Positions 40,940-61,481 of a stretch of 64,000 bases of DNA are shown piece after piece. The DNA is taken from contig NC_060253.1 of NCBI RefSeq assembly GCF_921293095.1, positions 96,861,073 through 96,925,072 on the forward strand. Reading direction: 5' to 3'. Positions within the stretch are counted from its first letter, which is position 1. Each line of letters starts with the position of its first letter. Below the pieces are notes generated by a model. That model saw only the letters and a program-made list of their open reading frames with translations, had not been told where the DNA came from and searched no databases. A program made the translations under genes and the position numbers. Origin of the DNA: Ischnura elegans. Taxonomy: Eukaryota > Arthropoda > Insecta > Odonata > Coenagrionidae.

Positions 40940-41722
40940 TTTATAATCGGTTTTCAAAAGTGCTCGCAGGGTGGCGATGAGGAGAGAGCGATCCATTCCA
41001 ACCATCTATTTGCTCTAAATATTTATATATTATTTATTATTAGAATTGAAAATTGTGAGTAATATAATTTAAAACTAATAAATTTGATAGAGCATATAAT
41101 TTAAGTTTTGGTTAATGCCTCATTTCTCTTCTCAGTTCGGATCGCCATGCCCGTCAGCGACGCAAGTGGCGAGTACATTTAAATGCGCCATAGGTGACAA
41201 CATGTTTTGTTGAAACTGAAGAATCATATTCCGTGCTCCAAAACTCGAAAACATAACATTACGGTATCACATGTGCCTCATTAAGAATGATAACACGATA
41301 AGATTTTGATGAATGTTAGAACGGCTGAAACGTGGTTGTAGTTGGTGGTTGTGCTCTTTGTGACTTATTAATTGTTAATTTGTAATGACAGTGCTGTTTA
41401 TGTCGTGTCGACTGTGCGCTTGGAGTTCAGTGCCAACGAAGCGGTGTTTAAACACAAGTCTGATGTTTGAGATATGGGCGTAACCTCAATTCTAATAATA
41501 TGTGAACTGAAGATCCTTCATTTGTGTTTTAAAATATTCCGCTGTCATCCTAATAATTTTGTTCCTCCGCGATTAGAGCTGCCTGTGATGTTGAGTTAAG
41601 TAGTGCAGTCCGAGGATCTGTCGCGAAATATTGGGAGAACGTTGTTCCGGAATACAATGCGGTTATTCGATCTGTATCTGTGACCAAGAAACCTATTTAT
41701 TCTTGTTGATGAAGCCGTCACA
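40940..41722 (+). promoter_or_regulatory. upstream region / presumed 5' UTR and promoter of the seven-exon gene
   Basis: There are 783 bp ahead of the start codon, with no earlier in-frame coding evidence. Its distal part (about 40940-41220) is a diverged copy of the repeat at 20170-20350, so a mobile or duplicated sequence may contribute to the promoter. No TATA box was assigned. The last 300 bp are more GC-balanced and are the likely 5' UTR. Confidence 0.35.
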
Positions 41723-42298
41723 ATGGCAGATTATCACTGCGGATTACAATGTGTCATCGCTGAAATCAAATCTGGTCAAGAATTTCGCTTGAAATTTGTA
41801 CTAAACGGAAAAGAGTATATTTCATCCTACATAGAGAAAGAAAATTGTGCCTCTAGAAGTATTGCTAAGCTTCTGTCAACTTCAGATGCATGGAAGGCTT
41901 CCATTTGGAATGTGGTATCTGGTCCTCCCGGTTTAGGATGCCGTAGTCGGTATGTTACTGATATCTGGTGCCCAAGTCCCAATGAAGTGGAGAAACTGAG
42001 GTTGCCAGAGCCAATTTTTTCTGTCGTGTGTAAAATTTCACATTTCTTGGGAAAAGACTTCTTCATATGTGATGTGGGTAGGGAATTCCCCAAGGACGTC
42101 ATAATATTACCTCGATATCTTGTGTGTAATGCTTCAGGAAATACTTGTCCTAAAGTTGGAGATTATGTATTGGTTTCCGCGCTATTGATATTGGATCTTG
42201 TAGATGGTGTGAGAGTGAGTCGTATGATTCCATTTTGGGCATACTGGGATAGTTCGAACTGCTCTTTGGATAGTACAGGTCTTCTTAATGTGGTTGAG
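41723..42298 (+). CDS. unidentified gene, coding exon 1
   Basis: This exon holds 192 codons from the ATG to the donor GAG|GTAATT (phase 0). It carries the possible module 1 (residues 4-38) and module 2 (about 97-152). It is rich in Cys and hydrophobic residues, has no signal peptide, and has no obvious membrane span. Confidence 0.85.
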
Positions 42299-45200
42299 GT
42301 AATTTAATTGTCAATGTAAAATGTTATATTAAGATAATATGTCACAATTGTCCACATGCGAAGTTGTACATTTGAAAGTCGAAAGCTGGCATTTCGGTGT
42401 GTGTCTAGAGATGAAGACAACATTTTTCAGTATATTGGAATCCATGATACATTATTTCGTTTCAGCGAGGCCCAGGACATTCAGTTCGGCACATTCCTGA
42501 CCAGATACCTTGCATGTGGGGTGTTGTTGAGAAAGTGGCCAAGAAAAGCCTTAACGTTTATGTTCCTTGCGTTGATTCATCTGTGTTGGTTCCGAAAAAT
42601 GTTATTTTTCCTCATGAGGGCGACATTTTGGAAGAAGATTGGCTTCAGTTATGGCTGTCTCCACAGGTATTTATTCATAGTCTCTTAATTCTGGTTTCTC
42701 TTTTTTCCTGATAAAAGGTTATGTGTGAATATCTTATGTCCTTTGGTGAAAGAGTCTATAAAAATCGATGCAATAAAACTACTTAACACGTTCAGTCTCA
42801 ATGGTGGTGGGGTAACTAACTGCTAACTAACAAGATGAGAGTTCAAGTCCTCCCTGTGTTATTTGTTTTAGCACTCCCTTTGCATGAATATGTTCGTGTG
42901 TATTTGAAAAGACAGTTGTAACTGAAGAAAAGATCGGCCTAGAGTTGCTTAAGTAATTTAAGCAAAATTATTATTATAATTATAATTCACAACTATAAGC
43001 ATGTAAAATTAATCCCATAGAACTTGCTACCTTCATGGTGGTGAAATTCATCTTAATTACAAGGCAAAATATTCTCCTGTTCCGGGAATCAAACCACAGG
43101 TCTTGATTTTACAGGTTAGAAAAAATAATTTAGCTTGATTCACATATTGCCTCAGGCCAAAATTTGATGTTTTACGGAACCATGTTTTTGGTGCAAAATT
43201 TTCTAAAATCTTATAGTTTAGAGAATTTTCACTATCCCTTGTGATATTTTTCAATAAGTATTTGGAATCCTCATGACTTGCATTGTAAACCTGCAAATTT
43301 TCATAAGAATTGGATGAAAAGTGTGGCTGAGACAAATTATTTCCATCCTGAGATACTGTTGTTTTCAAAAGTATGTAGACATCCAGGAGTCCCACTTAAC
43401 TGATGGGACTGGGTCGTTAAAACTTGTGAGGTTGGTACATAAAGTGACCTGCATCCCTCACTCAAATGCCACCAATAGCCGACAAGGACGGAGGTGGACG
43501 CGACCTTGCGACTGAAGCTGGAGTCAAACTGCAGGAGCATGAGCCCAATCAGAATTAAGATTAGTGGATGGAATGTACTGGGGTAACTCACGTCCACACT
43601 CACGTTGGGCTGTCAGAGTGTTTTCTTTCGGATTCCGTGGCAGGGTTTTCCTATCTTTAGATTCATATTTGGACTCACCGTTTTGCTCTTACCAGTATCG
43701 CACTGTGGCCGAGTAGGTCTATACTGTGTGCGGTAATTGCGGTAAAGTTCTGGAAGGGTTCGAATCCGAAATTATAATGCCTTTTTTACTTTTTAAGGGA
43801 GACATCCTGAACATCATCATGATCTCTGCAGATGGCTCAAGAAAAAGTTACTACTGATTTTTTTTAAATGACTTAAGTTATTAAAATGATGAATTTATCT
43901 ATGCTAACACATTTCTAAACAGATTCATTCACGGTGAAGTAATTACCAGGGGAGGTGAGAATGGTATTATATTCGTGTATTTTTGCCTAATTACTATCAA
44001 ATCTCCTTTGAGTGTAATTCCTACACATACAGGGACGCCGACTTGCAAAAAATATTGGGGGGCCTAAACCGGGGATCTTGCCCCGGGAAATTTTATAATT
44101 AGTGAGTTTTAAGTTTTTTAAGCATTTTAGAAGAGTTTAATGATACATTAGAACCCTGTTAACTCGAATATCGAGATATGGACACTCCGGGGAAAATCGA
44201 CAAGCCAGGTACATTTTTTCCTCACCCCCATAATGAATTTTTGAGGGGGCTCGGGTCCCCTCATACTTTATGGAGTCTGCGCCACTTTACACATAGTCAT
44301 TAAAAGTCTCACAAAATAATCAGATACACTCATATTTGAAATCAATTTAATGACCTTATTGTAATAAAAATAATTGCAATTTGATCGATAGTCATAGTTT
44401 TTAAATTTCTAGTTCTTCATCACAAAAAATGTGGGAAATAGCGTGATTAAAAGCACCGACGCTTTACTTTCAGTGAGTGTGGGAACCAGGCCCCGCTCAC
44501 TAGGCAGATGCTAACGAATGCCTGAAGATGTCAGGGCAGTCGCCGCGAGCAGCGCCTCTGGCGGCTCGGCTCTGATTAAAGCGCGAATTCGAAAATCCAC
44601 AGGGGAAATCCTTGTACTTAGTTTATGTCTTTATTGGCTGAGATTTTCCTCTCGCTATAATGCCGCAACATTGTAGCAAGAGGCATTCACGTTCATGTTG
44701 TTCACCGGCTGGGAAACGAAGGTAGCAAAGATACCTGTACAATTTAAATAAGACTACCAGGTGACTTCGTTGACCTACAACACTCTTTTTCTCGACGTCC
44801 ACTGTCAGGGCCGGCTCAAGGCAAAATACTTACCACGGAAAACTACTGTTTTATCGCCCACCTACTCAGGGTTTTGGCATGAGATATCCCCGAATTACAT
44901 CGGGTTTGGTATGGAATAACCCCCAATCAAATTTGGTCGCCCCCTAGCTACGTCGTCCGGCCCTGTCTACTGTCGAGACTAAGTTAGCAGTTAACTAGAA
45001 TACCATGCCTTTACATTAGGAATAGACAAGTTATAATTTAATCATAAACTACATTGCTAAATTAATAGGCATAAATAGTATTTAGAGTACACAATGTGAG
45101 GAAAATCTCAGTAAATGGTATTGTATGCAATGAAACCAATAATATGAAAGGAATCAATTCCAAAAAAGAGGAAATAGACTACCACTATGGAAGAAGGAGG

Positions 45201-48200
45201 AGAGGAAGCGCAATCCTTTACCTCCTTCCATGTTACTAACATAATATTACAAAAGATAAAGAATAAGTCAGCAATCGTTGTTTAGGAATTTATTTGCTGG
45301 ATACCTTACATTAATCATGGATTTTTTTGGTTCATCCAATTTTATTGCTTCTCTATGTTAGTGTCCACTAATTTGAGAAAGAAAATGATTTACATTACTA
45401 CAACATCGTTAATGGCGTTACTCACTGAACATGCGAGAGTCACAGCATCATTTAACGAGCCAACCTAATCAAATTTGGATTTCTTGAAGAAGTCACTATT
45501 TCTTCTTTTGTCCTTCATCACGATATGAACTGATGGGATTCGCAGGCACAAAACTTCAACTTCACCAGTCCGTGGTATAATCACTTGATGCATCTCTTTC
45601 AAAGTCCGCTATTCATATTGTAAAAGCTCGGCACCACTCCCAACGAGCAAGAAAATACTCCGGAGTACAGGTACACGCACACAAAAACAAGCAATAATTA
45701 AATAGCAGCGCGTAATGGGATCAAAATAACGATACACACTGATACACATGCATCACTGTTTCCAAAACAAACTATGGAATTCATCTGGGTAACGACAATT
45801 CGATCCTAATCGGTGAGCATCTCTATCGATAGTGTGAACCCCTATCGATTGTGAGAGCCACAATCAATCATGAGACATTCTATCGATAGCTGCCAAATAA
45901 GTCCGAGCCAGATGTCTCCACCGTCGAAAGAGAGATAGAAAGAGGGCCAAAAGCTATACTATAGGGCCTTATGGGAGTGAGCGAGGCCTGGTGGGAACCA
46001 CTATGTATTAGTATAAGGTCCAGTTGGAAATAAATTGGTTTCTTCTCATTTTGCCCTTGGCAAATTATGAAAAACACCATTGTCGGCTCATTTATCCCAC
46101 CTAAATATATCACAGCAAACTCCTGGTACCACTTTTTCCACGTGCTGAAGACCAGAAATTCAGAAATCCTTTGGTCCCAAGCTTTCCGGATTTGAGGTCC
46201 TCAACTGTATTTTGATTTCATAAAGCTGAATGTTAAATTCATCATTCATTATTTGCAGACATTATGACGTATATAACTACATATATTGAGAAATGGAGTG
46301 TCAGAGAATAGATGCCCCTGGACTAGTGGTCTCTTCAGCAGATGCATAGAGGGTAGTCGCATCGAGGTGAAAATGTTTGGGAGGGCTAAAGCCTCCAAAG
46401 CCTTCCCCGTGGCTATGTGCTTGATGATTCTTGTGTCCACAGAAGAGCCAGAGAGGGTGTAGCAGGCTGGCGGAGGTGAGTGGCTGGGTGTGCAACTACT
46501 GCTGCTGGTCTGGGCGCGCTGCATATGATGGATACCTTGGGTGGAGGCTTGGCGAGCACTATGTGAAGCATACGGTGCAGCCAAGGCCCCAACCAGAGCA
46601 AGCCACATTGACTGGTAACGTGGGTGCTGACGTTGTGAAGCCCACTGCCACGCCAGCTAGCAGAGTGGTTGGTGATGTTGTGAGGCCCCCAGCTACTTGC
46701 AAAGGAGTTGTTGACATTACGACACCCACCACCACCTCAACTACCGAAGCCGGCGATGTGGGCATAGGCAAGGTATTGTTGGTGAAGGAGAAGAGCGGCA
46801 TGCTGCTCTGTGGGCGAGGCAGTAGGTGTCCTGTTGGCAAGCACGTGTTCCACATGGGCCTGATGACTGTGTTTGGTGTGAAGATGGCGTCCATCCCAGG
46901 AGTTAAGATGACCGAGCTTGTGGAGGAAGGTGAGGCCCTTGAATAATTCTTCTGTTCAAGACTCTGTAATTGTTGTTTGCATTCAATGGAACCCAAAGTG
47001 GTGGAGCAGTTGACATATTAAGTCTTATTGTGGTAGATGTTGCTTTCTAGTGGTCACTATAGGCACTGAAATTTTGCTTGGGGAGGTATTGAATTCAGTT
47101 CATCTCTACAATTTTCCTATCCATTGTTTTAAAACTGCCCTAAAACAATGCTCTTCTGACCAAGTCCATTATACTCCCCTCATTCTACATTACATTAACT
47201 TCAAAATTTGGTCTCCATCTCTTCTGCTTTCTGAAAATGCTACATGTCTAAGTCGTCTTTGCCGACCGTAAAAGGGTTCTTGGTAAACAAAGCAGGGAAC
47301 AAGTCCAAATGCTCATACAAAGCAACTCAACTTTATTCAAGCCAAGTCTTACACTCCTATTCCGCTGCCCAACTACAACTGCCTCCCCTAGCCGCCGTCA
47401 GCCCACGTCCGTCGAGTCGCCGCAAGAGATCGTTTCCCAAGCAACTCTTCGAACGCAAAACGAAGTCCGTTTTGAGGCGGCTCCCTGTCATCTGGCAGCT
47501 TTTATTAAACTTAATGAAAGCCACACTTACACATGTGTATTTTTACAAACATTTTGCTTGTTTTTATGAATTGAATTGTGTGAAGAGGGCAGCTGGTTAA
47601 TATGTGTTCCAATTACACTTAGAGCACAATTACAATCTCCTTGTCATGATTTGCCTATTGGATATAAATTGCGAGGCTCTGTCATGATGAATTGTATGCA
47701 ATCATGCAGTTTTGCTGTTGTTCCTTCCATGCAGGCTCCAATCTTGGTTACCGCATGAATCCTGTGAACCATATGCTGAGGGCCGTTTGGGTAGGGCCTG
47801 AGGTGGTGCCATTAGGGAGCTTAGACTTCCTCCCTCAGATGAATGATTGGGTGGCCTCAAGGAAACTCCGGCAGGAAGTCGTCCAGAAGATGGTATGCTT
47901 TCATGGTATTAGAGATAGGATATTAGTGTGCCCCTTATTTTCCATTGCATAAACTTTTGACCTCTCACCTCCTGATTTAAAGAAGAGTATTTCTACCTGT
48001 GTGGAATTGAGCGTGAGTTTGTGCGAAAAACCTGCCCAGATTTAAATCATGGCTGTGACTGCCGGTGTAGGAAGTCCATGCAACAGTTTGGTTTGTCCAT
48101 TTATAGTTTTTAATTGTTTCAGCATGTATTTGAGTTGCTACTCTAGTATATCGATCAGGAATTGTCAAGAGGACTTTAATTTAATTTAATTATTAATAAT

Positions 48201-51200
48201 TATGTAAATGTAATTGAGAATTTAGTGCAGAAGGCCAAAACTAGGAAAAAATACCATATAACATTAAAATTATGGAATATTTTTATAGTGTTATGGAGAT
48301 AAAACTTATGGCCAGTAAATATCTGATCTGTTATTCGTGAGATTGCATAGTTTCTGATAAAAGATTATGTTGAATGTATCTAAAGGGCATTTCCCTTGGA
48401 AATATTTGATACAGTGTGGTAGGAGAAAGCTGCAATAGATTGCAAATGAGAGAGGATCCTAAACAGTGCCAGAGAGAAGCTTTTAATCAAATATCAGAAA
48501 AAGAATGTTACAGCGCCACCAAAGTACCTTTAACAGAAGAGAATATGTTAGGAGAGATGGAGCACTATCAGATGAAATACGTAATTGAAGGAAAAAAATC
48601 AACCAGAGAAAATGTCCTACGAACATGAGATTCAAAATATTTCACCCAACTTCACCTTTACAGCTGTGTGTTAAAGATTCTGTAGCCATTTTTAGGTTTT
48701 ATCAAGTGCTAATAGTCTTTATGTTCTTATAAAGAAAGTTCTCAAATACTGCCTTGTGTACACATTTTGACTGAAGTTGTTGAAAAACGCATTTCTAGTT
48801 GTGATGTAGGTATTTGGAATGGTATCTTAGTCAATCGAAAATCAGCGAAATAAATGCACTAAAGCGCAAGCACTACCAATGAAGTTGATTATGGATTTTG
48901 ATGGTATCAATGGTGGAATTCATAATTTTTTTATAATAAGAAAAACGTAAAAAGGCACAGGATCCTTCCACCTACCACCTTTTTTTGAGATTTATAATTA
49001 ACGTAATATATATTTTCATCCCTTTGTTTTTACTAGGTAGTTTATATTTCCATTTGACTGAGAATCGTCTCCTTCATTCCATTTTCAATTACCCTTTTTA
49101 CTTTTTTCACTTTGCTGTGTCAAATAATTTATGGGCACACTTTCGGTTCTGATTCTGCCTCCCTGAACGATTATGGGGAGAAAGAAATCAAACTAATTAT
49201 CTAGGAAAAGCTGCATTTTGACAGGCCTAGAAGTTATTTTTGTTAGCATGTAAATATCAGTTTACAGTAAAATTCTGATAAATGAACCTCTTAATAAATA
49301 AATTAAATTAATTAAAAGAACCTTTGATATGCACAACCTCCATTTTATTACTTAATGAAGTATGTAACCAGTTCGGAGAAGCATTTCCATTTTTCGAAGT
49401 TCTTGGTTATAGAGGAAGCTGCCTGGTTGAGCTATGGAAAAGAGCTTGGCAGTACATATTTTCAGGAACAGTGAGAAAACTTGTTGTCTACTTTTTTCAT
49501 TCGACACTAGAAAATGGATTGTACTCCTACCATTATTCAATTACATCTTGTGACCTAGCAGAAAAATTTTTGTGATTTGTCCACTTTGACAATTCTAGAC
49601 TTTTTCGTGGACATGTCTTTGAAATTTCCAGATCTTGGCTGGTAAAATTACCTTCGGTTCTTGGTTCAAACTAGTCTCAGCCTTGTGTAATTAGGCCACT
49701 GCTGTTTTGAAAATTTTGTCTCACATTTCAAACGTACGACTTTCATTCCTCTGTTGGTCAGGTGGCAGTCTCACAGCTACCCAACTGCAGTTCTGGTTTC
49801 TTAATGTGAAGGTATATGTATAATCCCGGCTCAGCGAAATTCATTAGTCCAATGGCCACAGCAGGGATGCCGACTTACAAAAAATATCGGGGGGGCCCAA
49901 ACCGGAGATCTTTCCCCGGGACATTTTATAAGTAGTGAGTTTTAAGTTTTTTTAAGCATTTTAGAAGAGTCATATGATCAACATTAGAACACTGAGAACT
50001 CCAATCTCGATATCTGGACACTCCGGGGAAAATCGACAAGCCTGACACTTTTTTCCTCACACCCATAACAAATTATCGAGGGGGCCCGGGCCCCCTCAAG
50101 CCCCATGGAGTCGGCGCCACTGGGCCACAGGTATAAAAACCTTGGGCACAGAGTTCTTGGTCTTCTTACATACCCATGTTTACTCAGCTGCTTCCCTAAG
50201 TAAACAAATCAAGGTCTAGCTAGTCTAGCCCTTATTCCTCTATAAATCGATAGCAGCTGATGCTGGAGGACATTTTGAACCTTTTCAGTTCTTTGCAAGA
50301 AATTGTAAAAAAAAGAGCGGTGCAACAGCATTGGTTAATTTATTTCAAATTTTTTATGCCTCCATTCTCACTGGCAGCAGTTGAATCTACTGAGTCTTAT
50401 GCTGCGCAGGTCTCTATTACGTAGTTGAACTTTGTGATCTGGCATCATCATTAACTAAGATTCTGATAATCTTTTTATCATATTAGTAAAGTAATTGAAA
50501 TACAGTAGAATCCTGATTTAACGTTTTTCAGGGGGGACAACATTTAAAACACTAAATGAGGACCTGCCATTTTTTTCAGGTTTTAGGGTCTGTAATGATT
50601 GGAATGGCTTTTTATGAATAAAAAATATAATTTTAAGTAACTAAAAGGTGCTGTATGCAGCAAAAAAATCATTGTTTAAGTGTTCTCTGCCCAATGAAGG
50701 TTGGATGATAAATCAGCTAAAAAATGGGTAGTAAAAATAAGTAATGAGAGGATGACAATTGTTTTAATGAAATATTTTAAGAAAATTATAATATGCAAAA
50801 ACTTAAAAGCATTCCCACATGGAAAATAATGTGGGCATCAGTGATTCCATTTTTATGCATATTTCAGTGGTCTCGATGAGCTTTTAAAATTTTTTCTGTA
50901 AAAGTGACATGTATGGTAAAGCATTTCTAATGTAAAGAAAAGGTGTAAGTAGGTACCTACTCGAAAAATCGTCATTGCATCAATAAAGATGAGTGAAATA
51001 AAGGGACAGCAGAAGATCGCTAATCCCGAATTCTTAACTACCGAATATCTAGTACAAGGGAGGTTTTCTGGAATTTTGCCAACTTAACGTTTTCTGTTGC
51101 CTGGGCAAAACGAGGGATTTATGAGCCTTTAAAAAGCCTCCTGTGCGCACATTTTGGATTTCGAGGTCATCCAAAAAAAGAGAATCTTATTTCTAGTATG

Positions 51201-54200
51201 CGTACAAGTCGATGGTGATTCTACTCGATGATAACACCAGATTCGTTGTCATATATCCGCGGCCTCACGCAGGTCGAATGGAGCCGGGAGAAGTTGTTTA
51301 CGCGGCGCGCTGATCACCTTGACTCCGACTCACCTTGTTTCTCGGCAGCTTCGAATGAAATTTGGTTGGACCTTGAATAACGATTAGTTAAATTCTGTTA
51401 AGTGAAAAGGTTTAATCTTCAGCAGAACTGGATTTCATCTGAAAAATTGACAGTGCCTCTGGAGTTTGGCAATTTCGTCAGGGTTATGATGTCGAAGTCA
51501 ACCACCAAGGGATACCTGCCGGATTTTCGTATTTTTCCGCGCTCATCCATTTTACCGTTAGTATGCGCTGATTTTTTTTCCACCATGAGCGATTTATTTA
51601 GATTCATGGACCGTGATAGTTTGTCAAAACTGCGATTGTCATTCTCTTTTGACATAGATTAGCACCAGATAAATATCTTTGAATCGACAGCGATATCAAC
51701 CAGCCGCATGTCCGTAAATGGGGTCCGGGATATCTAAACTACGATGTAAAATAATGTAGTCCCGTAGGGAAAGAATGCTCTCACTCACGATCATGACAGG
51801 GGAAACACATCCTCGGTTCTTTCGCTGTTCCTTCGTGGAAACTGACCTTGGAATGGATTATAGAAAGAATCTTCTAGTGAACTGCGCAAATGATATTGGG
51901 CCTCCTCTTTTGAAAAGAGAAAGTAGCCGACTGGAAAAATATTGGGCTAACAATGGACTGTCCGTAGGGAGTGGAGTTGAAAGGGGCTTAAGCCATCAAT
52001 TGAAAACATAACGAGAAAACCATTATTGTAGCGGCCCTCGGAGGATAACTCGTGTCATCAGTCGTCACGTATGATCGAAGTCAAGTTCAAGAAGTGAAGG
52101 ATAAGGTAGTTTGAGGTTATTAAGGGATGACTTTGCTCCATTAGATCGGATCTGATACAAAAAGTGCCAGGTGTTTGGATCAGAAGGGGAGCGAAACATT
52201 ACGAGAAGACAAATCACCCACCTTACGAGTTGGAGGTCCCAGCGCAGCGTTCGCGGACGAAAGCAGTTGAAGAAGCGTTCCCCGGTAGATTCTATCGACT
52301 CTTGGTAACCTTTCATGAGACTCTTCTTGTTCATGAGCAGAAATTCGAAGATTTGGATAATCATTTGCATGAACCGTCATGAAAAAACGTTAAATCGGAC
52401 AAAAAAATCTTGTGCGGGAAAATTTTTTACGACCATAAATGCGGAAAAACGCAAAATGCGGAAACACGAAATACGGATAATTTTTACGTTGTCCTAATAT
52501 GGAATGAATCGGGACCCAAAAAAATAAACGCTAAATGCGGAAAAACGCTAAATGCGGAAAAACGCTAAATGCGAAGACGTTAAATCCGAATCCGACTGTA
52601 TATGTTAGGGTTACTCTTCAGTCCATCATTTTTTTATGGTTCAATGGTTCTTTTGATGTTTTCTTTGCTGGCAACCTTTTGAATAACTTCTGTGATGTAT
52701 TTTGGAGAACAAATGGCGAGTACAGGGGAGAGAGAGGCTTTGTAGTGTTCAGGGGTTGATACTCCTATCCTTGTATCCACAGCTGTGGATCTGTGCACGG
52801 CTTACACCAAAAGCAAGGCCACACCACAGGACTGGCATGGAGTCTGCTCGAAATAAAATCATGAATATTCCATAATATACTCAACTAAGCGTGCAATCTC
52901 ATTATTTAATCTTCGTTTTTTTCTTTGGAACTACAAGAACTCTATTTTCGGTCATTAGTGGCCACCTACTTGCACCATAGGGGTTATTGGTATGAATGAC
53001 ATCATATACTGCATGCCACAAAAATTACCGCATTCCTCCGAATATAGTCCCCCTCTGAATATAGCCCCCCCCCCTAATTTTGAGGCTTGAGTTTCGGGAA
53101 AAATAAAAAAAAATAGGTTTGAATATAGTCCCCCCCTTAACTTTCATCACGGGCATTTTTGGAAAAAAGGGGGGACTATATTCAGACATATACGGTACCT
53201 CCGAATACTGCCACCATCAAATTTTGGCTGTTGATGGATGGGACTAGCTTCAAGTGTTTGCTTCCATCACAATGGCTCACCCTGGTTGATTTCATCTGCC
53301 CTCTTTGCTTTTGACTATTTGTATTTTTAATAGGGATCTTTAAGGAGGTGATTTCTTAATCAGTTATTTCATTTCTCTCGGCCATGTCTCTTATAGAAGC
53401 CAGATTCCTGTCATTTGCGTATATTCATGTGTTGATCACATTGTGTCAATTGCTGTATCCTAGGCAGTTATTTCATTTATGATTTGCTATTGTTTCTTCT
53501 TGTCGACTCGCACGAGTTATGTATCTAGGGGTCTGGTCATCATTAAAGTTATATGATAAAACATTGTTTGTGTCGTTCTTGTTGCCTATAAAATAGCAAT
53601 TCCTTCTCATATTTTCTTCTTTTGTGCCAGCTCAAGTCCATCATGGACAATTTTGAGGCTGCATCCAAGCAGAAGGGAGCTGCAGCATTGCGTGTGGAGG
53701 TCACCAAGGTAACTGTGGGGGCAGGTGACGGTGGCCCATCAGTCATGGAAGCCGTGAGGGGTGCAGCTGATGGTCGTGATGATGAGGGGCAGTCTGTGGA
53801 AGGGTGGTCGGTCGACTCAGACGAGTCGGAGGTGGACGAGCTGGAACCCCTACCCCCCATGAAAGGTTTGCTCCCTTCTGCTTGCAAGGGCACCCCTTGT
53901 ATGTGTGTGGCTCTCACCTGTGTTTGTTTTGTGGTCAGCCTTTTCCACCTCGCTTGGATTTACGCTTTCCCTGCGTGGCCTCGATGGAGTTACTATTATG
54001 TACACATGTGCCAAACATTTTATCCATTGCTCTAATGAGAAGCCAAATGGTGTCTCACTACTTAGCATTTGGAGTCATGTGAGGTTCGTTGTAGTGACAT
54101 TTGCTAGGGAATGTGTTCTTTATTTTTTTTATTTCTTTAAAAAAATTTATTCTCATAGCACCGAATACAGCTCATATTGGCCATTTTACATCAGGACGTT

Positions 54201-57200
54201 CAACAAATTGAACAATTACACATGCTCAAACAATTTTGCCCTGGGTGGGGGCAACTCTCATCACTGAACTTGAATGCTAGGTTAGCACTAACCTCCTTGG
54301 GAGTGATAAATTGTCATTGAGGATGGTCTACCACCTACAGAATTACCCAATACCACGGAGATATATCATCATCATCAACAGTCATCAATCTAAAAAATTT
54401 TTGATGTATCTCTCCTCTCAATTCTCCTGTCAGCTAGTCTTTTAACACCTACATAAATATTCTGCTTTTAGATGATAGTCAAGGAAATTTGTGTTGGAAT
54501 GAAATAAAACCAGGGATCTTTTGATACCATTTTCTAGTTCCTCAATTGCCATTCTCTGCTTGTAGGCATAATGAAGCTCTTTAAAAAGTGAAAAAGTACA
54601 ACTTTCATTTCTGCCAGTTCTTAAAATCATAGTTGAGATCATATGTTTCTCTTTCAATTTCATCTTCAACTTTGCTTAGTTTTTTCACTTCACATGATTT
54701 AATGGCAGGGAGTCATAATATACAATTCTTCAGAGATGTTTTTTTACTTTGAGGTAGGAATTCTGTAGGAATGGAGTGCTAACTTTGTATGCTGTTTGGT
54801 TTGCAGAATGTCATTGTTCTCTGCTGGTCGATGACTTGCTTTTCGAGGTGACTGCCCACAATCATTCGTTTCAAGATAGCTCCATCAAGCATCCTCTGTC
54901 CACAGTTTACACTGATTGCAATGTTATCACTCAGATTCAGCAAATATAACTTTAAAATTGTGAGATGATAGTGTATTGGTGCATGTTAAGTGCTCACTCC
55001 TATGAAAAATGTATGTAGAATGCTCTTGCAAATTATATAGTGCAGCATGGGTCACTGAAACTCTCAATACTGTTATATTTTCAAGCTCGTGTTTGAAGTA
55101 CAGATTTGGTGATTATCCTTTTGTTTCAGGTTCACAGGAGCGCCGTGAAGGCTGTGATACACAATTTTCTGCAGAACCAAGCAGGGAAGAGGTGAAGCAG
55201 GAAGGATCATTGGGGGCTCTGCAGCATCCCAGTGCGGGGAAAGTGGAGGACAGTGTGGAAACGGTGAGAGGATGTGGCTATGGTGGGGCATCCAGGAAGG
55301 TGCCAGTGCCTTTCGAGGCCCTCTTCGAAAGCGTTTTCCGAGTTTGTTTTCTAAAGTTTCAATCATCAAGTTAACTGGATTTCAAGAACTTGATGATGAA
55401 GGACAATGATCTCAAATGACAACTTACGAACGCAGTCATCTTCATAGCCATGTTAGTGACTTTGGCACAATGGGTATTGTTTGAAATTTGATGTTTTTTT
55501 TTCATCCCTGTGCCAACCGCTAGATGTTTCTTCTGTTGGAGGTACTCCATTAATTGTTATATGAGATCATTGTCTTCATCATCGAGTGAACTTAAAATCA
55601 AGTTAAATTGATAATTCGGGCCCAACTGTAATGGGGTCCCTTAGGTGTCCTTGAAGGAAATGTCTATCAATCATTGTCTAATAAGTTCAAAATAATACCT
55701 AAATTGCTGCCCACTCATCTTGAGTTAGTAATCTCATGTCATCAGAGTTCCTGCACATTAACTTGATCAGGGAGATCTGTGCATTTGGGGAAGGAATTCT
55801 TCACTAGAGTCTAAACGACATACCGAACAATGCACAAGGCCGAGGAGTAGCTGAGAAGTGGTAGCACATTTGGCAAGAGCTCTTGATGTCATCAACTTGT
55901 CTGAAAAGGATCTTTGCTGTCAATTTTGAACTGAGAATAGTGTGAGATATAGGTAATAGATAAAAAAAAAGGAAAAATATGGGTTCATTAATTTTTCAAA
56001 CTCCGTCACAGACAACAACATGAAAAAAATGGCGAACGAGCAATTGTATTGCCTATGTTTCATAGGCCAGGGCTTACTGTGGAGACCTGTTCATCAAAGT
56101 TTAGTCTCAATTGGAAAAATTGAACCACTCAGGAGAAGAGTGTCTCTTTTTAAACTCCAACCAGTATCACCCTTCCACCATATGTGGTTGGAGGAGTCAT
56201 TCTAAAAGGTTTCACCCCAAATTGAATAAATACAGCGAGGAGAGCTTGCTGGATGGTTAGAAGATCACTATTATAAGTGATTGCTTGAAAATTTTCTTAA
56301 TGAAGAGGACTGTATGAGTTAGTCTTGGAGAATGAATTTGGAAATTCAAGTGCTTTTTCATTTAGGAGGTGCCCAAAAGCTGTACACCCATGTCTCGTAT
56401 AGCGCAAGGGATGCGTTCCTTGGGGTCTTTGCGCTATACGAATTTGCGTTATACGAGAGCGTTTTAACATTGGGAAGATAGGGATGCGTTCCTGGTAGCA
56501 TAGGTCTTGGGTATTTTGGGTATTGAATTTCCTATAAAACATCTATATTCCCTTAAAAAGCCTTAGAAAACATTATTTATATAAATGTTTATAGTTTAAA
56601 ACATCTTTAAAGATAGTATGCACACATTCAAAGACTTTTATTCACGTTAAAAAAAATTCTTACGTGCTTTTGAAATTCCCTCCTGTGGTGCGGGTGGGCT
56701 AACATCTGCTATCTCAGGGGATCGTAATGCGTTGCCGGCAGTTGACGATTTTTCAAACTAGTTTAAAAACAACTATTGTGTCACTCAGGCCCTTTTGTTG
56801 CTCATCGAAATTACAGGAAAATGCTACTTTGAATGCCATTTCATAGCTAGCGGAGTTTATGAATGATTAATCATTTTAATTTGAAGTCCTCCGAGTCATT
56901 AGCAGCTACGTGAAACAGCCTTTAAATGCCTTGGAACCTGACCCAGGTTTTCCTTCGTTGAAAATGAATGAACGAGATTGCATTCTTTTCCAAAACAATA
57001 TCGTCTCGTCAACACTAAAAACTGGTTGAGGGGGAAAGGAGCCACTTTCAATCACAGCTTGGAGTTCATCAGAAAATGTTGCGGTGACTGCGCTATCAAC
57101 ACTTGCAGATTCACCTGATATCGCCGCACTGAAAATACCTGCTTGCCGTTTAAATTCTGGAACCAACCGGAGCTTTCACTAAATGTCTCGGAGCGATTAC

Positions 57201-60200
57201 CACTCTCGTCTTTTTGTACTGATTCACTATGAACTTTCCGTATGTGTAGACCGCTTGGTTGAAGTTGGTGCAGCTGAGGTCACTGATGTTTTAACTTCGT
57301 CTTTAGTCAGAATAAGGCATCGTGCGTTTAAACTTCCGTGCAATATCGCTTTGACGTTCTCCATTTTCAAAGCAATTGACCTCTTTCAATTCCTCTTCTA
57401 GGTTTATAGTTTTTCTTGATAAATTCTTGATTTTTCTATGCGCATTCCTATTTTTTGGCATATTCTCTTGGTTTTTACTCTGTATGGCTCTATCTAAATC
57501 ACCTTCCACTGCTGAACTGTATTCCTGAGACGCAGAAGGCCTACGACTGCGGGGAGGGAACGAAGCCATTGTGTTTGAGACTCTATAGCGGACCCTTTTA
57601 TGTGTTGATGCTATTCATGCGCAACTCGGCCATTGCTCCATTTGTCCCCCGTGAATACCGATGACCTTGAAGGCTTTAGCGTAGACCCTCTACCTGGAAG
57701 TCAATCGCCCGATAACCTATGGCGGCAAAAATACGTCTCAAACCGTATTGCTGAAAAAAAATCATTTCCACCAGCCCCACTCTTAATTGACGATCTAAAT
57801 TCTTTTTTATCATTCTGTTAAGGAGACGAGATTAATTACTTCGGTAGGCCGGCTATCTGGACCCAATGACGAGTAATACTTTTGGCCATTGCACAGTAAT
57901 GCATTTCGATTAATATATAAACAAAAAAGAAGATTTGAGGCAAGCAATAATATAAATATGCGTAAAATGATAGAAATTTCGTGTGTAATTAGCGCAAGTT
58001 CACATTTTATCACGAGAGCGTTTAAGATTTTTGATTAGGCTACACTGCATTGCAATGTTTCCCCGAGGAACGAATTTGCGCTATATCGAAATTGCGCTAA
58101 TCGAAATTGCGCTATACGAGACATGGGTGTACTGACTTGCTACCATTTTGTTCTAGTATGATTGTGATTTCAAAGCTACCATCGGATATCAGTGCTAACT
58201 TGGTAGAATATGATCTTTCACTTTCTGTCTACGACAACAGACTTGATGTAATATTTCAAATCCTGCCGTGTGAACGGCGGTGAAATATTCAAGAATTGCC
58301 ATGAGAAAAAATTCCCCTGGACCAGGAATCGAAACACGGACCTTTGGCTTTGCTGGCCAATGCACAGATCACTATGCTATCCAGGTTCATTAATTCCCAT
58401 GGCAATTGCACCGAGGCTCATGGTAATAGATGTTGGGCGCTTGCGGTCCACCAAGGATGGCAACGCGAGGGAAATAAGACTTCCAAGAAGCCATGACCAG
58501 TTTTCTCCCTTGTGTTGCTATCCTTGATGGACCGCGAGGGCCCAACACCTAGTACCATGAGCCTGGGTGCAATTGCCATGGGCTCTTCTACACTGAATGG
58601 GGGGGGGGACAATTTTGGGGCTTCGGTTTTGGGGTTCAATTTTGGGGCTTACTGTTAGTTTTGGGGTTCATAGACGACACTGGTATGGAATTTTCTTAAC
58701 TTGGCTTGGGGGTCGGGATGGATGAAATGTCTTGTTAGTTCTTGGTTTGTGGCAAGGGCAGTGGTACTTATCAGATCCAGGTCGCGTCAACGCTGAGGGC
58801 TGAGTTTCTGCTTTTTGCGGCTCCTGGTGAGGGCTGTTGCCTTCTGCCGTGTCTCCATGATGGGGTGGCTTTCCTTTGGCAACTGAAAATTACTGGTCAG
58901 TCTCCTTTCTCCTGTCGTGCTTCAATTTAGCCCATCCACCCATCCCACATCGCGATAAATCTCCTCCGGCTGCGCATTCGCCAGCAACACTTCAACAAAA
59001 CCAGGCCGACTTCTTTCTTTAGCGTGGCAATCTTACGCTCTGAGTGACTGCGTGACCCAACTCGTTCTCCTCCCGGCGGCCACTCTCGCCGGTGTTTTAT
59101 CCCCAAAAGTCGTGTTGGTGTACCTGGGGTGGGGCAGTGGGAGGGCTCGTAAACGGTTGCTCTCTCGAGCCATATCACCATGGGGGATAGGTGGGGGGGA
59201 AATGTCTTAGTTCGTTTCGCATCACGGGGACTTCTTAAACCAGGAATTGAAGGTGGGGGAGGGAAAAATGAATCACTCTCACATCGTTCGCTCGCACACA
59301 GGAAAAATCCACACGCACACAAAAAAAATAAACCTCTGCTTGACCATGAGGTAAGGCTCTCCCTCTTTCAAAGTGTCCATTCAACCCGTAATGTTGCCAG
59401 CTAAATGGCGACGGTTACACTATGCAATATCCTTGTCAGACACTATGCCTGTGCTGATATGTTTGAATGTTAAGCTTTGGCATTGCTTACTAAGGCAAGA
59501 GGTATACCTTTCTGATTGTTACTTCATTCATCTTCCCCATTGCTTTTTATTCATAAGCCTTGGAAATGGTGGATGTAGGTTTGCACCAAGGGGATATGGG
59601 TGGCAAACCAGGGGTCTGGGAATTCCTCCCCATTCAAAAGGGGGTTTTGAAGATTTAGGAAATTTGGGATTTTCATGACTTAAACATGGTGGTTTTAAGC
59701 TTATTCTTTGATAAAAAAAAGACTGCTAAGCATTTTTTGTAGGTCATTTAATTAGTACCAAAGCATGTAAAATAGACCGTAATTTTAATTCATGATAGCA
59801 GGTAAATTTACCGGAAAATACATATAACTTTTTACTTTACTTTTGTACAAAGAGGTTACCTCCAAAAATTTTGATTTTTATCAAGTTTATGTTTCAACTC
59901 AAGGAGGAGGGGGGATAGCCCCCTCAGGCCATGGGGTCACTGAGTCCTGGTATAATTGGGGCTTATGGATCTTATCAAAAATTTCAACTGCTGGAGAGGG
60001 GCAGGCACTGAAGCCTATTTGGTTTCCTATGCAGGTGAACAAGGAAAACCCACTGCTGAGGCTGGTCCTCATTGAGCTGGCCAAGTTCCTGTGCAAGGAG
60101 TTTGTGGAGAAGGGCAAGCTGGCATCAGTGGCTGAGGCTTGTGAAGTGTCGGCTGATTTTGTTGCTCGCTTGGAGGAAGTTTTGAAAGGTGCTGAACAAG

Positions 60201-60250
60201 ATGGCCTCCTGGGGCCGGCAAAGAAGTCTGTTGGCCTGCAGACTGATTGA
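41723..60250 (+). CDS. unidentified seven-exon gene encoding a 668-residue protein with repeated beta-rich modules
   Basis: I predict join(41723-42298, 42466-42666, 46443-46929, 47735-47892, 53631-53865, 55130-55263, 60035-60250). Every junction keeps frame (phases 0,0,1,0,1,0) and every intron is GT..AG, which is strong evidence for a real gene. The product starts MADYHCGLQCVIAEIKSGQE in a cacaATGg context. Residues about 97-152 (FSVVCKI...FPKDVI...VGDYVL) and 208-246 (MWGVVEKV...VPKNVI...EGDIL) look like two copies of one module; residues 4-38 and 367-398 may be diverged copies. Residues about 305-362 are Thr/Pro/Val-rich, 535-550 acidic (DSDESEVDELE), and 598-650 look helical (LLRLVLIELAKFLCKEFVEK). 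The end is KSVGLQTD. I do not recognise the family. The modules could be OB/S1-like or Tudor-like, but that is a guess. Exon 3 could use a more internal acceptor. Confidence 0.82.
42466..42666 (+). CDS. unidentified gene, coding exon 2
   Basis: This exon is exactly 67 codons, with acceptor TTTCGTTTCAG|CGA and donor CCACAG|GTATTT, phase 0 on both sides. It encodes the clearest second copy of the module (GVVEKVAKKSLNVYVPCVDS, then LVPKNVIFPHEGDILEEDW). Confidence 0.85.
42780..42870 (+). repeat. possible tRNA-derived SINE fragment
   Basis: A tRNA-like string (tggtggtggggtaactaactgc) is followed by the B-box-like gagttcaagtcctcc. It lies in intron 2 of the seven-exon gene. No tail or target duplication was found. 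Confidence 0.35.
43693..43780 (+). repeat. tRNA-Ser/Leu-like pseudogene or SINE head
   Basis: The sequence gcactgtggccgagtaggt fits a class II tRNA A-box region, and gggttcgaatcc is an exact B box 50 bp on. The acceptor ends do not pair well and the anticodon arm is not convincing, so it is not called as a functional tRNA. Confidence 0.5.
44022..44295. mobile_element. hAT-type MITE (family D), copy 1, with perfect 8-bp duplication
   Basis: The element 44030-44287 starts CAGGGACGCCGACTTGC and ends GGAGTCTGCGCCACTT, with flanks tacacata on both sides (44022-44029, 44288-44295). It is colinear with 49862-50122 (gtgagttttaagtttttt; ggacactccggggaaaatcg). It lies in intron 2 of the seven-exon gene. 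Confidence 0.92.
44808..44973. mobile_element. short hAT-type MITE (family E)
   Basis: The 150-bp element 44816-44965 has ends CAGGGCCGGCTCAAG and CGTCGTCCGGCCCTG. The flanks tccactgt and tctactgt match at 7 of 8. It is non-coding and lies in intron 2 of the seven-exon gene. Confidence 0.8.
45824..45888. promoter_or_regulatory. cluster of three TATCGAT(A/T) motifs (DRE-like)
   Basis: TATCGATA lies at 45824-45831 and 45881-45888, and TATCGATT at 45843-45850. TATCGATA is the DRE bound by DREF at many insect core promoters. The cluster lies in intron 2 of the seven-exon gene, 560 bp before exon 3, so it could mark an internal promoter. This is inferred from motifs alone. Confidence 0.4.
46443..46929 (+). 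CDS. unidentified gene, coding exon 3
   Basis: The acceptor is TTCTTGTGTCCACAG|AAG and the donor GAGGAAG|GTGAGG (phase 1). The exon has a Cys/Trp-rich start (GWVCNYCCWSGRAAYDGYLG), a long Thr/Pro/Val-rich linker, then GKVLLVKEKSGMLLCGRG and FHMGLMTVFGVKM. The frame closes with a stop 16 bp past the donor, so splicing is required to continue. Confidence 0.75.
47735..47892 (+). CDS. unidentified gene, coding exon 4
   Basis: The acceptor is TTCCTTCCATGCAG|GC, which completes a Gly codon from exon 3, and the donor is AAGATG|GTATGC (phase 0). It encodes SNLGYRMNPVNHMLRAVWVG, then EVVPLGSLDFLPQMNDWVAS, then RKLRQEVVQKM, a likely amphipathic helix at the end. Confidence 0.82.
49854..50130. mobile_element. 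hAT-type MITE (family D), copy 2, with perfect 8-bp duplication
   Basis: The element 49862-50122 starts CAGGGATGCCGACTT and ends GAGTCGGCGCCACTG, an imperfect inverted repeat. The flanks are ggccacag on both sides (49854-49861, 50123-50130). It lies in intron 4 of the seven-exon gene. Confidence 0.93.
50501..52600. mobile_element. Tigger/pogo-like DNA transposon, decayed, TA duplication
   Basis: The element 50503-52598 is flanked by TA on both sides. The left end CAGTAGAATCCTGATTTAACG and the right end, read on the minus strand, CAGTCGGATTCGGATTTAACG are inverted repeats of the pogo/Tigger type. The right subterminal part holds a 17-bp tandem repeat (52530-52585). Internal frames (51402-51662, 51775-52011, 52164-52382) carry no transposase motif I can recognise. 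It lies in intron 4 of the seven-exon gene. Confidence 0.75.
52530..52585 (+). repeat. 17-bp tandem repeat, about three units
   Basis: The unit aacgctaaatgcggaaa is repeated with related, looser units upstream from 52430 (aatgcggaaaaacgcaaaa). It lies near the right end of the Tigger-like element and may be subterminal. Confidence 0.85.
53026..53197. mobile_element. Stowaway/mariner-like MITE with TA duplication
   Basis: The element 53028-53195 is flanked by TA. Left ccgcattcctccgaatatag and right, read on the minus strand, CCGTATATGTCTGAATATAG are inverted ends, followed inward on both sides by a run of C (tccccc / tcccccc). It lies in intron 4 of the seven-exon gene. Confidence 0.7.
53631..53865 (+). 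CDS. unidentified gene, coding exon 5
   Basis: The acceptor is CTTTTGTGCCAG|CTC (phase 0) and the donor ATGAAAG|GTTTGC (phase 1). It encodes LKSIMDNFEAASKQKGAAAL, a Gly-rich stretch, and an acidic, probably disordered segment (SVDSDESEVDELEPLPPMK). Confidence 0.82.
55130..55263 (+). CDS. unidentified gene, coding exon 6
   Basis: The acceptor is CCTTTTGTTTCAG|GT and the donor GAAACG|GTGAGA (phase 0). It holds 44 codons of charged, Glu/Ser-rich and probably disordered sequence (SQERREGCDTQFSAEPSREE). Confidence 0.78.
56906..57166 (-). pseudogene. Tigger transposase DDE-domain fragment
   Basis: The frame contains QPVFSVDETILFWKRMQSRS, which matches the first catalytic Asp motif of Tigger/jerky transposases (VFN.DET.LFWK..P.RT), preceded by a degraded linker (ELQAVIESGSFPPQ). 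It continues into GKPGSGSKAFKGCFT. The rest of the DDE domain is missing. Confidence 0.88.
57303..57569 (-). pseudogene. Tigger transposase N-terminal fragment (CENP-B-type HTH)
   Basis: The frame contains KTINLEEELKEVNCFENGER followed by QSDIARKF, matching the pogo/Tigger N-terminal helix-turn-helix pattern (K..LEEKL.V...ENGE...DIAR). The domain is cut off from the catalytic part by frame breaks, so the gene is inactive. Confidence 0.8.
58298..58585 (-). mobile_element. tRNA-like element with a long hairpin, copy 2
   Basis: On the minus strand the tRNA-like unit (CCTGGATAGCATAGTGATC ... TTTCGATTCC ... GTCCAGG) follows a hairpin. Arms of about 75 bp, at 58396-58475 and 58510-58585, are inverted copies (catggcaattgcacc, aggctcatggta, gttgggc, gcggtcca.caaggat.gcaac). 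The anticodon-stem-like TTGGC/GCCAA is perfect. It is related to 34225-34427. Confidence 0.75.
58600..58670 (+). repeat. minisatellite of ttttggggttc units
   Basis: After a run of 10 G, the units aattttggggctt, ggttttggggttc, aattttggggctt and agttttggggttc recur about four times. On the plus strand this is G-run-rich and could form a G-quadruplex. Confidence 0.75.
58730..59400. other. GC-rich intronic stretch, open frames on both strands, no gene recognised
   Basis: This lies inside intron 6 of the seven-exon gene. The minus frame 58927-59322 (131 codons) has no recognisable domain and is overlapped by plus-strand frames. It may be a mobile-element remnant. Confidence 0.35.
60035..60250 (+). 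CDS. unidentified gene, terminal coding exon 7
   Basis: The acceptor is GGTTTCCTATGCAG|GTG, and the exon has 71 codons plus TGA (60248-60250). It encodes a helical segment (LRLVLIELAKFLCKEFVEKG, then ASVAEACEVSADFVARLEEV) and the C-terminus KKSVGLQTD. Confidence 0.86.
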   Translation: MNKENPLLRLVLIELAKFLCKEFVEKGKLASVAEACEVSADFVARLEEVLKGAEQDGLLGPAKKSVGLQTD

Positions 60251-60426
60251 AACAGTGCCCTTTTCTTTCCTTTGAGAGAAAAATCCTATGTTGACCATAC
60301 ATATCTATAGTGTGTGGGGTATTTTTTTACTTATATCTACTTTTGTACATATTTTGATGAAGAAATAAGGCAAGATGGTGTTGCAAACCCTTCACTGGAT
60401 GCCTAAGTACTGTACATACCAGGTGC

Positions 60427-60432
60427 AATAAA
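60427..60432 (+). terminator. polyadenylation signal AATAAA of the seven-exon gene
   Basis: A canonical AATAAA lies 177 bp downstream of the stop codon, in sequence that turns T-rich just afterwards (acatttttttcag). It fits a short 3' UTR for the plus-strand gene. Confidence 0.7.
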
Positions 60433-60471
60433 TTACATTTTTTTCAGTCTTCTTTTCTTTGATTGTGAGAG

Positions 60472-61481
60472 TAGGGGTGCGGTCCGTTGAACGCTACCAA
60501 TGCTTCGGAGCGCCACCAAGCGGTCCGTTATTCGCTACGGAGCGCTACAGGTTAGGCTGTGACGTCACGGCAAACGTCATACACCCGTTTCCCGCCTCGC
60601 TCCGGACCAGCTCCAGACGCTCCCCTGAAAACTTGGGTCAGCGGAGGAGCGAGTCAATTTTTGGCGGAAATTCGAAGGGAATGCACTGAGGCAATGGAGA
60701 GTTTACTCACGTTGCAGATGATGGAGGCTGAATGTGGACGCCTTTCTCCTATATAAGTGACTACGAAGTAACGGAGTAGACGCACTTAGTAAATAGATGT
60801 AACTTTAATTGTGATTTAAATAAATATGTAGCAAGAACTAAATATCGACAAACATTCTCGTATCTCCCCCAAAATGAACTCAAATGTCTTTGGAAGCAGC
60901 CTTTACATACAAAAGGCAACAAAAATTATTAAAAGGGGCATGTAATATAAAGAAAGGATTGTAAGAACATATATCGACAAATTTACTCATGCCATAAATT
61001 AAAATCTGAAGAAAAATAGGATATACATGAAATAGATTAATGTTTTTTAATAGTCGTTAGCCATTATAAGTTAATATGTTTCAACTGGGAAAACGGTAGA
61101 GTACCTACTTTTTCCTTTACTAGGGTAATGAGTTTCATTGAGAAGGGTAGGCGAGAGTTGGTGTGAGAAATACAGTCCAAAGTTTCTTCCTTTACTATGT
61201 GGAGCCTCGGTATTGAAAAATAAAATTCATTTTAATGATATTCAAACATATTTATTAATATTCAATGATCATAGTCACCTCAATTCGCAATTAAAACCAC
61301 ATCTTCGATTTCATAATCCCAGTTTGCCCACCCTCGTTCATTTCCGCCATCTTGACTTCGCTCCTGACCGGTCCGAAAAGAAATTCTCGTAGCGAACGTA
61401 GCGCCTATGGACCGGTGCTCCGGAGCACTTCCGTCTGTAGCGTCTGGTAGCGAAAGTAGCATTCATTGGACCGCACCCTAG
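60472..61481. mobile_element. 1004-bp TIR element with TAG duplication (PIF/Harbinger-like size of duplication)
   Basis: The element 60475-61478 has ends GGGTGCGGTCC and GGACCGCACCC, flanked by TAG on both sides. Weaker inverted similarity extends inward (gaacgctac / gaatgctac; gagcgc / gctccgg). No transposase was recognised. It begins 42 bp past the AATAAA of the seven-exon gene. Confidence 0.83.

What the first reader, a model, noticed from the sequence alone, without database searches (positions are those of the whole stretch)
41723..60250. Complete gene of unrecognised family with phase-consistent exons
Seven exons join without a single frame conflict into a 668-residue protein, ending 177 bp before an AATAAA. 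Such agreement is unlikely by chance. I cannot match the protein to a named family, so it may be a lineage-specific or fast-evolving gene. The mix of beta-rich modules, a disordered acidic linker and a helical tail is typical of adaptor or RNA/protein-binding scaffolds, but that role is inference.
Basis: partly seen in the sequence, partly recalled or inferred. Interest (0 to 1): 0.75.

Follow-up and report, generated by a model that had tools for sequence, protein, structure and literature searches.

The report
Ordinary single-copy damselfly gene, family unrecognised
The stretch very probably holds a genuine split gene of a damselfly for a protein that matched no catalogued family here; it looks like an ordinary gene, perhaps fast-evolving, and some of its exon borders are not settled.

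Summary
Seven GT-AG-bounded + strand exons join into 668 codons plus stop, with AATAAA 177 nt further on. A generic gene finder scores the best chain here 40.7, against at most 7.1 in 200 dinucleotide shuffles and at most 16.5 in stretches of the same window that do not overlap the gene; it recovers six of the seven exons, four with identical borders. [quoted passage not shown] The gene is single-copy there at the sensitivity used, with no significant match in Pfam, NCBIfam or PDB sequences. An S1-like (MOV10L1/CT55/CCAR-type) barrel origin was tested and not established. Best reading: a genuine gene for a modular protein with a beta-rich N-terminal half, an acidic disordered linker and a helix-prone tail, unrecognised because it is diverged or lineage-restricted. 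Its role is inference. Interest is low.

The parts
41723..42298 (+). Exon 1 (residues 1-192): ATG in the context ACAATGG, segments A (1-95) and B (96-180); donor GTAATT, alternative in-phase donor after 42214
   Evidence: 192 open codons, open in 0 of 2000 simulations
42466..42666 (+). Candidate exon 2 (residues 193-259), 201 nt, phase 0/0, may be optional or absent
   Evidence: coding score +5.4, donor only in the top 6.1%, net score negative; skipped by the gene finder
46443..46929 (+). Exon 3 (residues 260-421): linker and most of segment D; donor in the top 0.1% of all GT in the window; first in-frame ATG only at 46800
47735..47892 (+). Exon 4 (residues 422-474): end of segment D and start of a helix-prone stretch
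   Evidence: acceptor in the top 0.1%
53631..53865 (+). Exon 5 (residues 475-552): helix-prone stretch and start of acidic linker; weak donor (top 9.0%), alternative in-phase donor after 53898
   Evidence: acceptor in the top 0.1%
55130..55263 (+). Exon 6 (residues 553-597): rest of acidic, predicted-disordered linker
60035..60250 (+). Exon 7 (residues 598-668 and stop): helix-prone tail ending KKSVGLQTD
60427..60432 (+). AATAAA, 177 nt after the stop: candidate polyadenylation signal
   Evidence: 18% of window positions have an AATAAA within 177 nt

Best explanation
A genuine, single-copy, intron-containing protein-coding gene, very probably of Ischnura elegans. It lies on the + strand and is spliced from 6 or 7 coding exons into a protein of roughly 570-680 residues, probably soluble. 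The N-terminal half looks beta-rich by sequence, followed by an acidic disordered linker and a helix-prone C-terminal tail. Shown: coding potential, splice architecture, single copy, composition. Inferred: that the N-terminal modules are small binding barrels (S1-like/OB type is the best lead, about 20%) and that linker and tail tether them to a partner, so that it acts as an adaptor (about 30%). The family is unrecognised because it evolves fast or is restricted to the lineage; that too is inference.
For: Open frame and GT-AG borders. Chain score 40.7 against at most 7.1 in 200 shuffles and at most 16.5 in non-overlapping stretches of the window. Each of the 7 exons scores highest in the claimed frame among all six frames; codon position 1 is G-rich, 0.40. 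The 7 matches of the joined protein in the 1.72-Gb genome at E up to 10 (11 candidates scored) are its own seven exons, so it is neither a repeat nor a large family. Disorder index negative for 41-residue windows centred on 521-581; Asp/Glu 25 against Lys/Arg 9 in 496-597.
Against: No transcript or homologue could be examined. Exon 2 and two donors are unsettled. Exons 1-2 have lower GC3 (0.34, 0.40) than exons 3-7 (0.50-0.65), and an AATAAA at 42772 lies 61 nt after the stop that ends the exon 2 frame, which would fit a separate or shortened upstream transcript; 7% of window positions have an AATAAA that near. One 19-residue stretch (145-163) has mean hydropathy 1.73, slightly above the usual 1.6 threshold for a membrane span (recalled), though it holds three Asp. 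The adaptor role has no direct evidence.
Confidence: 0.85

Rival explanations
1. A diverged relative of the S1-like family (MOV10L1 N-terminus, CT55, CCAR1/2): modules B (96-180), C (199-275) and D (366-450) are degenerate S1-like barrels in a protein without the helicase, possibly binding RNA.
For: By eye B and D share patterns with recalled human CT55/MOV10L1 modules. A home-made S1-like HMM gives B, C and D scores equalled or beaten by 6, 10 and 10 of 300 shuffles, the N-terminal 460 residues by 3 and the whole protein by 4 of 300. B and D align to each other at p=0.008.
Against: Pfam S1-like gives no hit at E up to 10 on the whole protein or on modules A-D, while it hits the recalled human proteins. 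Segment A shows nothing (103 of 300 shuffles equal or better; 32 of 60). hhalign probabilities are at most 3.9%, with 2, 8 and 14 of 60 shuffles equal or better for B, C, D and 3 of 60 for residues 91-450. The aligned stretches are only 9-17 residues, and the segments were chosen by me after looking. B-D is the only pair below 0.01 among 27 non-overlapping pairs. The S1-like model finds a CCAR1-like locus in this genome but not this one.
Confidence: 0.2
2. Two transcripts: a short upstream gene or isoform (exons 1-2, ending at 42711 with AATAAA at 42772) and a downstream gene of exons 3-7 with its own, unidentified first exon.
For: GC3 difference between exons 1-2 and 3-7. AATAAA 61 nt after the exon 2 frame stop. 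The finder offers a substitute first exon at 44518-44613 at only a few points less (36.8 against 40.7, each with its own regional background).
Against: Exon 3 has no in-frame ATG before 46800 and needs a 5' partner in phase 0, which exon 1 or 2 supplies. With one common background the real upstream stretch beats 60 of 60 shuffles (67.5 against at most 63.8), while the stretch without exons 1-2 scores 57.9, within the shuffled range 56.3-63.2. The finder does not call exons 1-2 as a gene of their own (best score for exon 1 alone -6.0).
Confidence: 0.12
3. The exons are remnants of transposons or chance open frames.
For: The introns hold repeats and a DNA transposon.
Against: Single copy in the genome at the sensitivity used. 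No Pfam match of any kind. Chain score far above shuffles.
Confidence: 0.03

Closest known systems
S1-like domain proteins (Pfam PF14444): MOV10L1 N-terminal region, CT55, CCAR1/CCAR2
   Same: Short beta-rich-looking modules with a P-x-x-G-D-like turn followed by V-x-V (by eye). Scores of B, C and D lie in about the top 2-3% of shuffles, the N-terminal half in the top 1%.
   Different: No match to the Pfam model. No helicase found. Has an acidic linker and a helix-prone tail. Long insertions relative to the canonical module (by eye).
Unannotated single-copy orphan or lineage-restricted insect genes (general knowledge, no call)
   Same: Single copy, spliced model, no recognised domain.
   Different: Restriction to a lineage could not be tested, because no related arthropod genome is searchable here.

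Membership tests
S1-like (PF14444) | Profile match at or above the curated cut-off of 25.2 bits | tested here: not met
   No hit for the whole protein or modules A-D at E up to 10; the locus is not among the 3 own-genome matches (7 candidates scored)
S1-like (PF14444) | Score above chance with a profile of family members | tested here: inconclusive
   3-10 of 300 shuffles equal or better for B, C, D, N-terminal 460 and whole protein, 103 of 300 for A; 2, 8 and 14 of 60 for B, C, D. The profile is built from six recalled human modules plus one PDB stretch
S1-like (PF14444) | OB/S1-type beta-barrel fold | not testable with these tools
MOV10L1/Armitage | SF1 RNA helicase domain in the same protein | tested here: not met
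   No Pfam match in the 668-residue protein, which ends in a stop codon
Real spliced protein-coding gene | Open frame, splice sites and coding bias above chance | tested here: met
   not met by exon 2 on its own
Real spliced protein-coding gene | Spliced transcript | not testable with these tools
   No RNA data held
Transposon-derived repeat | Multiple genomic copies | tested here: not met
   7 of 7 genome matches at E up to 10 are its own exons (11 candidates scored)

The most novel reading that the evidence does not exclude
An odonate protein that carries three or four diverged S1-like/OB barrels without the MOV10L1 helicase, joined to an acidic linker and a helical tail that ends in a possible dynein light chain LC8-like QT motif: a fast-evolving germline or RNA-silencing adaptor not yet described.
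Probability: 0.07. Interest if true: 0.5.

Novelty: new member of a known kind. Interest (0 to 1): 0.2.

Why it matters
As found, it matters mainly as annotation: a genuine gene without a named family in a well-assembled insect genome. If the N-terminal modules proved to be diverged S1-like barrels, it would show a free-standing, helicase-less relative of the MOV10L1 N-terminal region in an early-branching winged insect and give a candidate germline factor to test. That is not shown.

Tried and rejected
Pfam, NCBIfam and PDB sequence searches of the joined protein gave nothing significant (best PDB E 0.25, a designed protein), nor did pieces (ResB E 0.1 for module D; DUF7692 E 0.028 for the tail, NMT1_3 E 0.12 and DUF1153 E 0.13 for residues 442-500, all below their cut-offs; best PDB E 2.8 and 0.49). 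Relatives were sought in viral contigs with exons 1, 7 and 3 and in prokaryote genome contigs with the whole protein: of the 1, 9, 1 and 10 stretches that matched a pattern, none encoded a relative. Internal repeats among eight hand-chosen segments: of 28 pairs, one is an artefact of overlapping segments (H and Acid) and only B-D (p=0.008) is otherwise below 0.01, so repeats are not established.

A chain of six upstream + strand exons (437-23091) that the whole-window run attached to the gene was left out. On its own it scores about 29, more than the 10-15 of the minus-strand, reversed and complemented controls. Scored in 20-kb stretches with their own background, that part of the window gives 4.8-16.5 with one to four exons, and one of its open frames (1594-2004) has no Pfam match. 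I did not pursue it. At the loosest penalties the finder also adds three small exons between exons 6 and 7 (58757-59350), which I did not accept. The amphipathic-helix test of four stretches gave one with p about 0.03 (residues 634-650), not convincing. Paper searches on S1-like/MOV10L1 proteins and odonate orphan genes (listings and starts of abstracts only) gave nothing on this gene; PMC9975421 came from the listing and was seen as found passages.

For the check I made and mended: the real-sequence controls added, the AATAAA odds added, the hydropathy caveat added, the status of the upstream chain corrected, the CCAR1-like loci looked at, residue ranges corrected.

Full report
Where it is. 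The window is contig C8, 96,861,073-96,925,072, of a genome of 1,722,721,009 bases in 110 contigs. The published assembly of the blue-tailed damselfly Ischnura elegans has 1,723 Mb in 110 scaffolds (PMC9975421, found passages), so the source is very probably that species. This is an identification by size and count, not by name.

The observation. I found seven + strand exons with GT-AG introns that give exactly 668 codons and a stop: 41723-42298, 42466-42666, 46443-46929, 47735-47892, 53631-53865, 55130-55263, 60035-60250. AATAAA follows the stop by 177 nt and the ATG lies in ACAATGG. The AATAAA alone says little: the + strand of the window has 79 and 18% of positions have one within 177 nt.

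Is it more than chance? A generic gene finder (splice matrices and amino-acid-based coding score set from general knowledge, not trained on this genome) gives a best chain of 40.7 in 41001-61000 with six exons of this model, four with identical borders and two (exons 1 and 5) with the alternative donors. In 200 dinucleotide shuffles the best was 7.1 and the longest product 144 aa; the opposite strand of the same region gives 3.4. Real + strand stretches that do not overlap the gene give 4.8, 11.1 and 16.5, so unshuffled sequence is a harder control than shuffles, but still far below. In the claimed frame each of the seven exons scores above the other five frames. Exon 1 was open in 0 of 2000 simulations and exon 3 in 0.1%; the short exons alone are not improbable (open in about 7-27%). 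The gene is therefore real with high confidence, carried by exons 1, 3, 4, 5, 6 and 7.

What is not settled. Exon 2 was skipped in each of the three penalty settings and has a net score of -2.49. It is 201 nt with phase 0 on both sides, so including or skipping it leaves the frame intact. Exon 1 can end at 42214 or 42298 and exon 5 at 53865 or 53898 with no change of phase. Phase agreement at those joints therefore does not discriminate. Exons 1-2 have GC3 0.34 and 0.40 against 0.50-0.65 for exons 3-7, and AATAAA at 42772 follows the exon 2 frame stop (42711) by 61 nt (7% of positions have one that near), so a short upstream isoform or a separate gene is possible. Against that, exon 3 has no in-frame ATG before 46800, and the real sequence upstream of exon 3 beats 60 of 60 shuffles only when exon 1 is included (67.5 against at most 63.8; without exons 1-2 57.9, within the shuffled range 56.3-63.2).

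What the protein is. It has no match in Pfam or NCBIfam at E up to 10 and no meaningful PDB sequence match. Pieces gave only sub-threshold hits. In the own genome its 7 matches at E up to 10 are its own seven exons (11 candidates scored), so it is single-copy at that sensitivity. The most hydrophobic 19-residue stretch (145-163, mean 1.73) is slightly above the usual threshold for a membrane span (1.6, recalled) but holds three Asp, so I take the protein as soluble without proof. The 41-residue windows centred on 521-581 are predicted disordered by charge and hydropathy, and segment 496-597 has 25 Asp/Glu against 9 Lys/Arg; the last 71 residues are helix-prone by composition. The C-terminal KKSVGLQTD resembles dynein light chain LC8 ligands (motif recalled, not tested beyond a pattern match).

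The S1-like lead. By eye segments 96-180, 199-275 and 366-450 recall the S1-like modules of MOV10L1 and CT55. The Pfam S1-like model detects the recalled human proteins (3 stretches each) but none of the window modules. A home-made profile of six recalled modules and one CCAR2 stretch gives scores equalled or beaten by 6, 10, 10 and 3 of 300 shuffles for B, C, D and the N-terminal 460 residues, and by 103 of 300 for segment A (shuffles not listed by the program count as lower). hhalign gives probabilities of at most 3.9%, with 2, 8 and 14 of 60 shuffles equal or better for B, C and D. The segments were chosen after looking, so these figures flatter the lead. In the own genome PF14444 finds two exons on C6 and one weak hit on C5 (17.7 bits), not this locus. 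The C6 exons read CCAR1-like by eye next to the CCAR2 stretch, the C5 one CSDE1-like by eye. The lead stays open at about 20%; membership is not claimed.

How it most likely works. From its make-up (beta-rich-looking N-terminal half, acidic flexible linker, helix-prone tail) the most likely role is a soluble adaptor whose N-terminal modules bind a ligand and whose tail binds a partner. This is inference, at perhaps 30%; the gene itself is at about 93%. The best-explanation score of 0.85 covers the gene and its make-up, not the role.

Verdict. A genuine, ordinary gene whose family could not be named with the libraries at hand. Whether it is lineage-specific or fast-evolving could not be tested.

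Noticed in passing
window 56383-58131: DNA transposon with perfect 25-nt inverted ends (TACACCCATG...) inside intron 6. Minus-strand open frames within it look transposase-like (pogo/Tigger-like) by eye, but Pfam did not confirm this (only DUF4094 at E 0.013, Antimicrobial23 at E 0.43, both below cut-off; ends).
   Followed up: partly
window 44057-44218 and 49890-50054: Two copies (85-92% alike over the matched parts) of the same interspersed repeat in introns 2 and 4.
   Followed up: no
window 58396-58582: 82-nt inverted repeat, 87% complementary, 23-nt spacer, in intron 6.
   Followed up: no
L002:3569-3952 (+), about 3.6 kb past the window end: Open frame downstream on the same strand encodes a RING finger (Pfam zf-C3HC4 over its cut-off), by eye RNF146-like (RING plus start of WWE): a usable synteny anchor.
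   Followed up: partly
window 437-23091 (+): Six open stretches that the gene finder chains at about 29 points, above the 10-15 of its controls, though 20-kb stretches scored alone give 4.8-16.5. Could be another gene or composition bias.
   Followed up: partly
window 42711-42777: Stop that ends the exon 2 frame, followed after 61 nt by AATAAA: possible short isoform by intronic polyadenylation.
   Followed up: partly
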